From contig NZ_CP098747.1 in the NCBI RefSeq assembly GCF_023746535.1, forward strand, positions 3,157,001-3,221,000: DNA of 64,000 bases. Reading direction: 5' to 3'. Within the stretch, counting starts at the first letter, position 1. The number at the start of each line of letters is the position of its first letter. A program made the translations under genes and the position numbers. A model generated the notes under the pieces. That model did not search any database. It saw nothing but the letters and a program-made list of their open reading frames with translations, and was not told where the DNA came from. Of the stretch, positions 47,510 through 54,845 are shown in pieces. The DNA is from Sneathiella marina. Lineage in GTDB: Bacteria > Pseudomonadota > Alphaproteobacteria > Sneathiellales > Sneathiellaceae.

Positions 47510-47790
47510 AGATCGTCGCTGGATAATTTGTGACTGTACAGTCTTGATCCAGCCGTTTGATCGATCTATCGGTTAAAAAATATATATCCAAATCGTCAGA
47601 CGCTAACAGGAAGCTGTTTCCAGCAGGGGTGACGGCAGCCTGGCCCCGTATGATGCCTGAAAATCTGTCTGGTAGCTAAAAACCCCTCCGCTCCTGTTGT
47701 GCTTCACAGCCGACGCCAGGACACGTCCTGAGATTGCTGAAGGCTTTTGGCCTTTCAAAAAACGACACTGACACTGAAAAGGACAATCCG

Positions 47791-48654
47791 ATGTGGACAG
47801 ACGTAACGATGCAATCCAGGCATCCCCTTGACGATATCATGCAGAGCGATACCCAAATCAGCCCGCGGGTAAAAATCGGCAACACGGATCTTAAAATAGA
47901 CGAAACCCTATATGGCTATCCGGCGAAAGGCGTCTTGTTTCTTGAAAGCCCGGGCGACATCATGCGCGATCTCTGGGGCGATACACGGACACGATTGCTC
48001 AGCAATATTCTGGGGGCGCTGCGGAAATATGAGCGGCAAAAATGGCCCGTAATTTTTGATGGCCCCTTGATCAAGACCCCTAACAAATCCTTTAAGGCCA
48101 GCGATAAAGACTGGCATATCTGGGGTAAAATTATCACCCTTCTGGAAGCCAATAAAAATGACCTGATAAAAAAATTAAAGCCCGGTCCTCTGGATTCCAA
48201 GTTTCAACTACAAACGCTCACCTTTATAAACGAAAATAAATGCAGTTTTATCGAGATGGCAGGCGTCAATGAGACCGCCTGCTGCTATATAATTGCGCGT
48301 ATTCTGGCGGCCAAAGTCTGGACAACCTTCCTTATCGATACCATACATCCGATCTGGCGCCCCCTATATGCTCACCAGTATGAGCCGCCGGTCCTGACGG
48401 CAATCGTCGAACCAGCACTTTGCGGCAGCGAGGTTTTTCCGGGGTTCCGGCTTAGAGACCCCAAGTCCTTTCAAAATGACTGGGTCTGCTTCTCCGGAAT
48501 AGGCGTTAAGGAATTTAGTGATCGCGGAAACAAGCCGCTATATAATATGGGTAAGGTCCTTAAATCCCTGGGCAATCTGAAAAGCCGCACGAAGCCTGAT
48601 CTTGACGGCAACTGGCGGGCACGGGACAAAATCAGGATTAATCCGCCGGGATAA
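47791..48654 (+). CDS. Unrecognised protein in an A+T-rich patch
   Basis: A 287-residue protein, AAAGGA before the ATG at 47791. I recognise no family. It looks globular with no membrane segment or signal. Notable parts are VLFLESPGDIMRDLWGDTRTRLL, KDWHIWGKIITLLEANKNDLIKKLKPG, a Cys pair GVNETACCYIIARIL, and a Lys/Arg-rich C terminus. Codon use is more A+T-rich than flanking genes, and the next gene is a broken Abi-like gene. This suggests an acquired pair, but function is open. Confidence 0.65.
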   Translation: MWTDVTMQSRHPLDDIMQSDTQISPRVKIGNTDLKIDETLYGYPAKGVLFLESPGDIMRDLWGDTRTRLLSNILGALRKYERQKWPVIFDGPLIKTPNKSFKASDKDWHIWGKIITLLEANKNDLIKKLKPGPLDSKFQLQTLTFINENKCSFIEMAGVNETACCYIIARILAAKVWTTFLIDTIHPIWRPLYAHQYEPPVLTAIVEPALCGSEVFPGFRLRDPKSFQNDWVCFSGIGVKEFSDRGNKPLYNMGKVLKSLGNLKSRTKPDLDGNWRARDKIRINPPG

Positions 48655-48747
48655 CCATCTTTTCCGGGGGCAAGAATATTTTAAATTCCCGGCTGTTTGG
48701 CCAAAGAGGCGGGTCCACCCACGTCACGCTTTTCAAAGGGAAGGAAG

Positions 48748-49420
48748 TTAGGTGTGACGTGGATCCTTGCCGATAATTTCCGAATGTCTTTGCTCCCGTT
48801 CCACCCAACCTGCCGCATCTTTGCTGCATTTTCGGATAGTATCCAATATCTTCGAATATTCGCTTACGATATCACGTTGAAAGATTGGTTCGTGATGCGC
48901 GATACGATTTCTGAATTTGCGTATCTCATTGAGCTGAAAATTCAAATTCCGACGATCATCTCTAAAGGACATATTCTTTTCGATATTTGGAAAAGCCGTG
49001 TAAAAATGCGGTTTCCATAATTTTTCATCCTGCCGTTTCGTCAGTAAACATTCCCAAAAAGCGAAGTTCAATTCCGCAATGACCTTCCCCGTTGTAGACT
49101 GCTTACGGGCGACATTTCTAAGGTTTTGTTGTGGGCTATAATGGATCTTGTTGTTTTGCAACGATTGAATGAATCCAGTAGCCCAAGGCCACCGATCTCC
49201 ATGTACTTTTACTAAGATACTGGATACTGGATACCGCATTCCGAACAGCAACCTCACAAACATGCAAAGGGAAAATAAATTCTGCAGAAACTTGCACATT
49301 CCATTGGTATAATTGTAGCGCTGCTTCAGGATTGTTATCCATTGCCCCCAAATAGGTTTTAAACCTCGGGTTGGATATTACCAATGGTAAATGCGCTATT
49401 TCCTCTTTAGAAAATACCAA
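48748..49420 (-). pseudogene. HEPN/Abi-like abortive-infection family gene, frameshifted by a 7-bp repeat
   Basis: Two overlapping minus frames (49136-49420 and 48748-49299) together give one Abi-like protein. The N half has YQWNVQVSAEFIFPLHVCEVAVRNAV, the C half has ELNFAFWECLL and the RNase-like HEPN motif RNRIAHHEPIF (Rx4H). Family proteins run straight through the junction. There the DNA has 2.7 copies of a 7-bp unit (49216-49234). Removing one copy makes a single 221-codon frame with no other break. A TTG start at 49420 has GGGAGG 8 bp upstream. It may be inactivated or phase variable. Confidence 0.82.
49216..49234. repeat. Short tandem repeat, 7-bp unit
   Basis: GATACTG repeated 2.7 times (49216-49234) inside the Abi-like gene. 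A unit length not divisible by three means slippage by one copy switches the reading frame. Confidence 0.9.
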
Positions 49421-49551
49421 TTATCAGCCTCCCTGTCCGACTGATTGATCCTGTACTCCCTTGACATTTGCAGCACCAACACATACATTTCTAGCATGAC
49501 GAGAGAGATTTTGAGGGCAACGCCCCCCCTTTCCGCCAATAGATATTTTAG

Positions 49552-49586
49552 AAAAGCCTGCTTGTAAAAGCAGGCTTTTCTTATTT
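49552..49586. terminator. Bidirectional hairpin terminator
   Basis: AAAAGCCTGCTT pairs perfectly with AAGCAGGCTTTT (12 bp) around a GTAA loop, with T-rich sequence after it (TTTTCTTATTT) and A-rich before it. It lies about 100 bp before the GNAT gene, in a region without genes. Confidence 0.85.
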
Positions 49587-49684
49587 CAAGGTACAGATTT
49601 TATTTAAAAATACCATCATATATTGAATTAAATATATTCTTAATCAATTTTAGGAATGTTCGCCAACCAGAAGCCGAGATCCAA

Positions 49685-50158
49685 ATGACCCAGGAAATTA
49701 CGTTTACAAGACTGCCGACAATTGATCCGGGTCTGATTATTGCCCATATGTCAGATCCACGGGTCGCAAAACATATGCCTCTTCTGACAGGTGACTGGAG
49801 CGAAGCAACGGTGGCCGAATTTATCGACAAAAAGGAAGAATGCTGGCGCCGGGACGGGCTAGGGCACTGGGCGATACTGGCGAACGGAGACTATATTGGA
49901 TGGGGTGGTCTTCAAAAGGAAGGCGAGGAATGGGACTTGGGATTGGTTCTGCAACCGGGCTTTTTCGGCCTCGGCCCCCGCATAACAAGAAAAGCAATTG
50001 ATTTCGCGATTGCGGATATACGCATTCCCTTTGTTACTTTTTTGCTGCCGCCCTCTCGTAAAAACCGACGGGCGCTTGACAGGCTCGGCGCCAAATATAT
50101 CGGCGAAATACTATATGACGGGGAGTTGTTTCTCAAATACCGGCTAGAGACTGAATGA
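49685..50158 (+). CDS. GNAT family N-acetyltransferase
   Basis: A 157-residue protein of the RimJ/RimL-like type: LPTIDPGLIIAHMSDPRVAKHMPLL at the N terminus, EWDLGLVLQPGFFGLGPRITRKAIDFA around the acetyl-CoA pyrophosphate loop, and RKNRRALDRLGAKYIGEILYDG near the C terminus. The substrate is unknown. It is followed 87 bp later by an MFS exporter in the same direction. Confidence 0.85.
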   Translation: MTQEITFTRLPTIDPGLIIAHMSDPRVAKHMPLLTGDWSEATVAEFIDKKEECWRRDGLGHWAILANGDYIGWGGLQKEGEEWDLGLVLQPGFFGLGPRITRKAIDFAIADIRIPFVTFLLPPSRKNRRALDRLGAKYIGEILYDGELFLKYRLETE

Positions 50159-52946: not shown

Positions 52947-54845
52947 TTAGCCGTTCATGCTGCGGTACAGATCCGTCCCTTCTTCGGCATATTTATTGGC
53001 GTCTTCCACCGCACCGGAGATTGAGCTGAGACTTTCATTGATCTCGCTCACCGCGGTTGCCGCGGATTGCATGCTGACAGTGATTTCCTTGGTGGTGGCT
53101 GTTTGTTCTTCCACCGCGCCGGCAACTGATGTCACGCTGCTTTCCACGGCGACGATGGCGTTTCGAATGCTTGTCAGGTTATCGACCACATTGTCACTGA
53201 TTGACTGCATGCCGCTGATTTCCGTGGCAATCTGATCGGTGGCATTGGCAACCTGTGACGCCAGTGATTTAACCTCCGTCGCCACAACGGCAAAGCCTTT
53301 ACCGGCTTCACCTGCACGGGCGGATTCGATCGTTGCGTTCAGGGCCAGCAGGTTGATCTGTGCGGCAATCCCCTGGATCACTTCAATGATATTGCTCATG
53401 GCCTGGGCCGCTGTCGCCAGTTCTTTTGTCGAGTTGTCCGCGTTGCTAGCTTCCTGATTGGCTTTATTCACCTCGGTTTTTGACGCCGTCATGCTGCGGG
53501 AAATTTCCTGGGCAGAGGACTGGAATTCCTCGGCGGCGGCGGCAACAGACTGCACCGTTTGCAACGCATTTCCCGATGCCGTCACTGCGGAATTGGTCTG
53601 TAAGTTGGCATCGCCAACAGAAGACAGGATTTTATCAAGATTTTCATCGACAATCTTGCCGACCCGCTCCCCTTCATGACGCGCAATTACCTGCGCCGTC
53701 ACATCCGTCGCGTATTTGACAACCTTGAACGGCTTCCCGCTGGGATCGAAGATGGGGTTGTAGGACGCCTGAATCCAGATCTCCTTCCCCCCTTTACCAA
53801 TACGTTTATATTCGGCGGCCTGGAATTCACCGCGACCAAGAGAGGCCCAGAATTCCGCATATTCGGCGCTCTCACCGTAGGTGGGTTCGACAAACTTGCG
53901 ATGATGCTCCCCGCGAATTTCATCAATGCTGTACCCTACTGCGCCCAGAAAATTATCGTTGGCATCGATGATCGTGCCATCAAGCTTGAAAGAGATAACC
54001 GCCTGTGATTTGTTCACGGCATCAATCTGGCCCTGGAAATCGGCGTTCTGCAAGACGCGCGCGGTAATGTCCGTCGCGTATTTAACAACCTTGACCGGTT
54101 TGCCGCTGGGATCGAAGATGGGGTTGTAGGACGCCTGGATCCAGATCTCCTTCCCCCCTTTACCAATGCGTTTATATTCCGCGGCCTGGAATTCACCGCG
54201 ACCAAGAGAGGCCCAGAATTCCGCATATTCGGCGCTCTCACCATAGGCAGGCTCGACAAACTTGCGATGATGCTCCCCGCGAATTTCATCGATACTGTAC
54301 CCCACTGCGCCCAGGAAGTTATCGTTGGCATCGATGATCGTGCCATCAAGCTTGAAAGAGATAACCGCCTGTGATTTGTTCACGGCATCAATCTGGCCTT
54401 CATAGTCGGCGTTCTGTATTTTCTGCGCGGTAATGTCAGTTGCAAACTTAACCACTCTTGAAACAGTGCCGGACTTATCAAGTATCGGATTATAGGAAGC
54501 CTGAATCCAGATTTCATTCCCACTTTTATCAAAGCGTTTATATTCCGCAGCCTGAAATTCGCCCCGCCCAAGCGCTGCCCAGAAATTTGCATAGTCGACG
54601 CTATCCGCCTCTTCCGGCGCGACGAACATGCTGTGCTTGTTGCCGACAATTTCCTCTAAGCTATACCCCATAGCGTTGAGGAAATTCTCATTGGCATCCA
54701 GGATCGTGCCTTCATTTGAGAAATGAATGATGGCCTGTGATTTGTCGAGCGCCGCGAGCATGGCATCTACCTCTCGCGCATCAATCTTGCCACTTTTCTT
54801 GACATTGGAAACGGCCGCTTTTCCGCGTGATAGAAACTTCAACAT
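52947..54845 (-). CDS. Soluble methyl-accepting chemotaxis protein with three PAS domains
   Basis: A 632-residue protein with no membrane helix: three PAS domains with their PAC motifs (about residues 25-145, 146-270, 271-395), then the MCP signalling domain with the hairpin tip [37 protein letters not shown] 2 and PAS 3 are almost identical over 122 residues, so the copy is recent. All three keep the KSQAVI...DANDNFLGA core. Haem or flavin binding is possible but not shown. It sits about 45 kb from the che operon, whose CheA and CheW are its likely partners. Terminator follows. Confidence 0.93.
53699..54430. repeat. Two tandem 366-bp repeats encoding PAS domains 2 and 3
   Basis: The 366-bp units begin near 53699 and 54065. 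Most of their length is identical at the DNA level, with only scattered substitutions. The unit equals 122 codons, so the duplication kept the frame. Confidence 0.9.

What the first reader, a model, noticed from the sequence alone, without database searches (positions are those of the whole stretch)
48748..49420. Abi/HEPN gene switched off by one copy of a 7-bp tandem repeat
The two frames of this gene fit one Abi-like protein only if one 7-bp unit (GATACTG, 2.7 copies at 49216-49234) is removed. The full length is then exactly 222 codons with no other stop. Abi proteins are toxic and costly, so a reversible slippage switch would allow on/off variation. The alternative is a recent loss of function. 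Seen directly: repeat, frames, HEPN motif RNRIAHHEPIF, TTG start with GGGAGG.
Basis: partly seen in the sequence, partly recalled or inferred. Interest (0 to 1): 0.7.

Follow-up and report, generated by a model that had tools for sequence, protein, structure and literature searches.

The report
Broken phage-defence toxin beside RNA gene
A bacterial gene for a self-poisoning anti-phage enzyme was broken by an accidental 7-letter duplication rather than by a built-in on/off switch, and next to it lies a small structured RNA, found beside nearly all intact relatives, that probably serves as the antidote and appears in no RNA catalogue we could search.

Summary
A minus-strand Abi/HEPN gene (TTG at 49420, stop at 48748) is split into two frames exactly at a perfect 2.7-copy GATACTG repeat (49216-49234). 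Each frame aligns to one half of intact relatives, with no gap if one 7-bp unit is ignored.

That a 7-bp tandem duplication broke the gene is well supported. A reversible switch is not: no second state was seen, the tract is very short, no other such array occurred in 864 kb of the genome, relatives have no repeat there, and other family members are broken by different lesions.

The larger result lies outside the stated coordinates. On the opposite strand, sharing the upstream region, lies a promoter plus a small structured RNA and terminator (about 49461-49586). Equivalent RNAs, in two structural types with strong compensatory changes, lie divergently beside 57 of 62 intact relatives, match no Rfam family, and often outlive the toxin gene. 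The protein folds like AbiF, solved bound to an antitoxin RNA. So this is probably an AbiF-like toxin plus RNA-antitoxin module with a recently dead toxin. The antitoxin role is inferred, not shown, and the window's own RNA copy matches only weakly.

The parts
49226..49420 (-). N-terminal part (65 codons, frame 1) of the Abi_2/HEPN gene, TTG start; this frame then runs out of register to a stop at 49136
49216..49234 (.). GATACTG tandem repeat, 2.7 perfect copies; one unit too many, the frameshifting lesion
48748..49218 (-). C-terminal part (156 codons plus stop, frame 2) with HEPN motif RNRIAHHEPIF
49428..49433 (-). ribosome binding site GGGAGG, 7 nt before the TTG start
   Evidence: read directly
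49461..49489 (+). promoter-like site TTGACA-17-TACATT for the divergent RNA; conserved in place in the relatives
   Evidence: the scan alone is at chance level, the support is its position
49500..49543 (+). core of the divergent structured RNA (type B-like, diverged)
   Evidence: best match of two models in 48500-50000 on the same coordinates: 5.7 bits and 10.8 bits, E 0.0096; not significant over 64 kb
49551..49586 (+). terminator hairpin and T-run ending the RNA

Best explanation
The locus is a horizontally acquired two-part module: a HEPN (Abi_2/AbiF-like, PD-T4-5-like) RNase toxin on the minus strand and, diverging from the shared upstream region, a small structured RNA that most likely neutralises it, as AbiFr and RCd22 neutralise AbiF. 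In this genome the toxin was recently inactivated by a 7-bp tandem duplication, probably slippage between two GATAC copies. The duplication could revert at a low rate, like any short tandem duplication, but nothing marks it as an evolved switch. Shown: the lesion, intactness elsewhere, the conserved structured RNA in the family, the AbiF-like fold of a relative. Inferred: RNase toxicity, the RNA's antitoxin role, and phage defence.
For: Lesion. Recent: no stop and 23/23 conserved residues intact; under neutral change this has a chance of about 8% at 0.03 and 1.5% at 0.05 substitutions per site. Acquired: GC falls to 0.39-0.46 against about 0.56 in the flanks; absent from 23 congeneric species genomes. 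Family: PADLOC PD-T4-5 E 4e-12 on the frame-2 piece; 23/23 relatives match PD-T4-5 and 21/23 AbiD and Pfam Abi_2. Fold: model of relative L007, pLDDT 93.6, best match 8vz6 'PbAbiF dimer bound to ncRNA', Z 12.3, rmsd 3.1 over 200 residues, next row 5.8. RNA: type A 10/15 and type B 7/10 pairs with double changes, covariation score above all 500 shuffles and all slid controls; divergent at 57 of 62 intact relatives, about 20 of them not used for modelling; blind scans of 374 genomes find it mostly beside these genes. RNA persists where the toxin is damaged or gone: L013, L025, L134, L152-L155, L157-L159.
Against: The window's own RNA is a weak match (10.8 and 5.7 bits), not significant over 64 kb and no more stable than shuffled sequence, so it may be decaying. 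No experiment shows that the RNA binds or inhibits this protein. It is divergent, whereas RCd22 lies upstream on the same strand, and it does not match the abiF motif RF03085. A regulatory role other than antitoxin is possible. Several RNA hits lie where no toxin gene is recognisable.
Confidence: 0.72

Rival explanations
1. Phase-variable defence gene: gain and loss of one GATACTG unit by slippage switches the Abi protein on and off in the population.
For: The repeat is perfect, its unit is not a multiple of three, it lies exactly at the lesion, and nothing else is damaged. A costly toxin would benefit from a switch.
Against: Only 2.7 copies. Sole period-7 array of its kind in 864 kb. No homologue inspected has a repeat at the site. 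Other family members are broken by different lesions. No second state was available to compare.
Confidence: 0.05
2. Plain pseudogene: toxin dead and its RNA also decaying, with no remaining function of the locus.
For: Window RNA scores weakly and folds no better than shuffles; decayed family copies are common.
Against: Promoter, core position and a strong terminator are all kept, and the toxin shows no second lesion.
Confidence: 0.3
3. Programmed +1 frameshifting at the junction (CTT A, recalling the yeast Ty1 site) still makes some full-length protein.
For: A +1 slip at CTT-A would enter frame 2 and add only two residues.
Against: Not conserved; homologues are in one frame without the extra unit. 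The next codon is not notably rare (own judgement).
Confidence: 0.03
4. The extra unit is an assembly or sequencing error.
For: Reads were not available.
Against: One-contig genome, 99.8% complete; a 7-bp unit in a non-homopolymer tract is not a usual sequencing error (own knowledge).
Confidence: 0.05

Closest known systems
AbiF/AbiFr (PbAbiF, PDB 8vz6) and AbiF_Cd/RCd22 of C. difficile (PMC12373285, PMC12737573)
   Same: HEPN Abi_2 protein of the same fold (Z 12.3), conserved R-x4-H motif, small structured RNA just upstream.
   Different: RNA is divergent with its own promoter and terminator, not ahead of the toxin on the same strand as in RCd22; no match to abiF motif RF03085; protein about 222 aa against 297 in the 8vz6 chain.
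PD-T4-5 (PMC9519451)
   Same: Same protein family by profile; HEPN; plasmid-borne relatives; described as distant AbiF/D relative with abortive-infection defence.
   Different: The passages read there do not mention an associated RNA; the window copy is frameshifted.
SSR-driven phase-variable genes (Neisseria, Haemophilus, Campylobacter)
   Same: Tandem repeat unit that is not a multiple of three, inside an ORF.
   Different: 2.7 copies only, no second state, no genome-wide set of such tracts.

Membership tests
Abi_2 / AbiF-AbiD HEPN family | HEPN R-x4-6-H motif | tested here: met
   RNRIAHH present in the window and invariant in 23 aligned relatives apart from I/V
Abi_2 / AbiF-AbiD HEPN family | curated Pfam Abi_2 score | tested here: inconclusive
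   window piece 15.3 bits against cut-off 25.6, but it is only part of the protein; 21/23 relatives match Abi_2 at E 1e-3 or better
Abi_2 / AbiF-AbiD HEPN family | AbiF fold | tested here: met
   on relative L007: 8vz6 Z 12.3 over 200 residues, next row 5.8; not modelled for the window copy
PD-T4-5 | PADLOC profile match | tested here: met
   E 4.4e-12 on the frame-2 piece; 23/23 relatives
PD-T4-5 | phage defence | not testable with these tools
   needs plaque assays
AbiF/RNA-antitoxin (type III-like TA) | structured RNA next to the toxin gene | tested here: met
   57 of 62 intact relatives with covarying RNA; the window copy itself is only a weak match
AbiF/RNA-antitoxin (type III-like TA) | abiF RNA motif RF03085 | tested here: not met
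   no match up to E 5-10 in window or relatives
AbiF/RNA-antitoxin (type III-like TA) | RNA on the toxin strand with read-through past a terminator into the toxin (as RCd22) | tested here: not met
   RNA is on the opposite strand with its own promoter and terminator
AbiF/RNA-antitoxin (type III-like TA) | RNA binds and neutralises the toxin | not testable with these tools
   needs co-expression and binding assays
SSR phase-variable gene | hypermutable tract with alternative repeat numbers among cells or strains | not testable with these tools
   no reads; no close relative carries the gene
SSR phase-variable gene | genome with a repertoire of such tracts | tested here: not met
   one period-7 and one period-8 perfect array of 2.5 copies or more in 864 kb; period-4 and period-5 arrays no more than expected

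The most novel reading that the evidence does not exclude
The widespread PD-T4-5-like Abi_2 HEPN toxins are paired with an undescribed group of divergently transcribed RNA antitoxins (two structural types, some in several copies), distinct from the abiF motif RNA, so that RNA neutralisation of HEPN toxins, the proposed root of Cas13, is more diverse than known; the window shows one with its toxin freshly dead.
Probability: 0.5. Interest if true: 0.75.

Novelty: new variant of a known kind. Interest (0 to 1): 0.55.

Why it matters
HEPN toxins held in check by RNA are thought to be the ancestors of Cas13 (PMC12737573). A second RNA arrangement (divergent, own promoter, different fold) beside a very common toxin family on plasmids, including tiny E. 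coli plasmids (L161), gives a ready system to test how RNA antitoxins arose. It would also add a missing part to PD-T4-5-type systems, which profile-based defence finders call from the protein. The window case itself is an ordinary inactivation, useful mainly as the pointer.

Tried and rejected
Read-through of the broken gene with four-letter codes failed because the words recur later, so the two pieces were searched apart and the fold was done on intact relative L007. Viral contigs held no relative of the frame-2 piece. A clean empty site could not be defined: the flanking genes are rearranged in congeners. Sequence search of the PDB found only unrelated designed repeat proteins. I first thought that broken copies lack the RNA; this was wrong for L134, which keeps it about 460 nt away, so the claim was dropped; of the clearly frameshifted copies only L133 and L064 lack it. 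L151 (broken) shows a hairpin by eye but only 9.4 bits, so it is not counted. Rfam matches in the window (Thr_leader and others) are sub-threshold and mostly cover the terminator hairpin. Five intact relatives (L010, L024, L029, L030, L053) gave no model hit above threshold; L010, L030 and L053 show candidate hairpins by eye.

Full report
Observation. The minus-strand gene starts at TTG 49420 with GGGAGG seven bases upstream and an in-frame TAA immediately before the start. Frame 1 stays open to 49136 and frame 2 runs from 49299 to 48748. The GATACTG array at 49216-49234 is perfect, 2.7 copies. Searched separately, the two pieces hit the same intact proteins in other bacteria: frame 1 matches their N-terminal 65 residues, frame 2 the rest, with the shared Ser falling on the same residue of the homologue. 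A profile of 23 relatives covers positions 5-66 in frame 1 and 60-213 of 214 in frame 2.

Is it chance? In 864 kb of the same genome (21%) no other perfect period-7 array reaches 2.5 copies, and a third-order Markov null gave none. The array lies exactly at the frame junction, so it is the cause. The repeat unit with its partial copy already holds two GATAC copies seven bases apart, a usual substrate for slippage (inference). The gene occurs once in a one-contig 4.07-Mb genome.

Recent loss rather than old decay. There is no other stop, and 23 of 23 residues conserved across the family are intact; simulated neutral change would leave this outcome with about 8% probability at 0.03 and 1.5% at 0.05 substitutions per site. 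GC falls to 0.39-0.46 in a region flanked by about 0.56, and the gene is absent from the other 23 species genomes of the genus, so it was probably acquired.

Switch or accident? Nothing beyond the repeat itself favours a switch. No second allele is known, the tract is short, the genome sample is not rich in such tracts, relatives have no repeat there, and family members elsewhere are broken by unrelated lesions: frameshifts in Rhizorhabdus pSWIT02 (L133), Novosphingobium Spl (L134), Moraxella pLQ510 (L151) and a second Tistrella copy (L064/L091), and an in-frame stop in L013. Recurrent inactivation is the pattern.

What the protein is. Pfam HEPN families and Abi_2 are sub-threshold on the window piece; PADLOC PD-T4-5 matches at 4e-12. 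All 23 relatives match PD-T4-5, and 21 match AbiD and Abi_2. The model of relative L007 (pLDDT 93.6) has as its best solved match the PbAbiF dimer bound to its RNA (8vz6): probability 1.00 in Foldseek, though E 0.049, and Z 12.3, rmsd 3.1 over 200 residues, well above the next row at 5.8; helical folds can reach such Z by chance, so the gap to the next row and the shared family carry the weight. PD-T4-5 was described as a plasmid-borne distant relative of AbiF/D giving abortive-infection defence (PMC9519451). AbiF of C. difficile is toxic and is neutralised by RNA RCd22 (PMC12373285).

The divergent RNA. The upstream regions of the relatives share, on the strand opposite the toxin gene, a sigma-70-like promoter followed by a short structured element and usually a terminator. 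Two types exist. Type A is about 55 nt (GUACACCCCGGGUCGGCCUCUGC-loop-GCAUGCGCCCGGGGU). Type B is a stem of up to 7 pairs, an asymmetric loop and an inner GGC/GCC hairpin, then a separate terminator. Type A: 91.8% of pair cells formed, 10 of 15 pairs with changes on both sides, covariation 0.326 against 0.202 in shuffles (0/500) and 0.04-0.12 in slid controls. Type B: 94.9%, 7 of 10 pairs, 0.613 against 0.242 (0/500). Both structures were derived from these sequences, which favours them over the slid controls; the type B set has only six sequences.

Models R1-R3 find the element beside 57 of 62 intact toxin genes, about 20 of them not used in building, though some of these are near copies of used ones. 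Blind scans of 374 alphaproteobacterial genomes gave 18 genomes for R1 and 7 for R3, and most hits are adjacent to toxin genes found independently by protein profile. No Rfam family matches above threshold, and abiF RF03085 is not seen even at E 5-10. Most RNA cores lie 34-107 nt from the start of the toxin's profile match; the window's distance from the TTG is 80 nt.

Toxin lost, RNA kept. In L152 only about 40 codons of the toxin remain, in L153 only a trace by eye, and in L154, L155 and L157-L159 no toxin is recognisable although the RNA is strong; L013, L025 and L134 have damaged toxins and an RNA. Of the clearly frameshifted copies only L133 and L064 lack it. This order of loss is what an antitoxin predicts, but it is not proof. 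L050 carries five RNA copies around one toxin gene.

The window's own RNA. Promoter TTGACA-17-TACATT (49461-49489 +), core 49500-49543 and terminator 49551-49586 occupy the expected places. Two models that share no sequences (R2, R3) both put their best match of the 1.5-kb region on exactly 49500-49543, at 5.7 and 10.8 bits (E 0.38 and 0.0096). Over 64 kb it is not significant, and the core folds no better than shuffled sequence. I therefore call it a diverged, possibly decaying member identified mainly by position.

Verdict. The finding is a real but ordinary inactivation by a short tandem duplication. Its value is in pointing to an AbiF-like toxin family with a divergent structured RNA that is, as far as these tools show, uncatalogued. 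It works like the AbiF RNA-antitoxin systems, by inference, but is not filed as a member of the abiF-motif RNA class, because motif and orientation were tested and not met. The 2025 study of AbiF and Cas13 origins cited in PMC12373285 could not be read here and may describe related RNAs.

Noticed in passing
window 47734-48654 (+): 306-aa ORF convergent with the Abi gene: no Pfam or PADLOC match, no relative in 59 other genomes or in the plasmid collection; low GC, probably co-acquired.
   Followed up: partly
window 53704-54714: Chemotaxis-receptor-like gene with a 366-bp tandem repeat (about 83-86% alike) that encodes repeated PAS-like domains.
   Followed up: no
L050 917-978, 1114-1172, 2185-2248, 2385-2448, 2584-2642 (+): Five copies of the type A RNA around one toxin gene, recalling the repeat-array antitoxins of type III systems.
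   Followed up: no
L153-L155, L157, L158, L159: Type A or B RNAs with no recognisable toxin gene beside them: orphan RNAs that may have independent roles.
   Followed up: partly
L148 1530-2057 (Marinibacterium anthonyi plasmid pLA6_010): Intact Abi gene and RNA lie next to a gene annotated as Cas9/Csn1.
   Followed up: no
L161 799-843 (E. coli plasmid pLAO39, 3.7 kb): Intact toxin plus strong type B RNA (40.7 bits) on a tiny E. coli plasmid: a convenient test system.
   Followed up: partly
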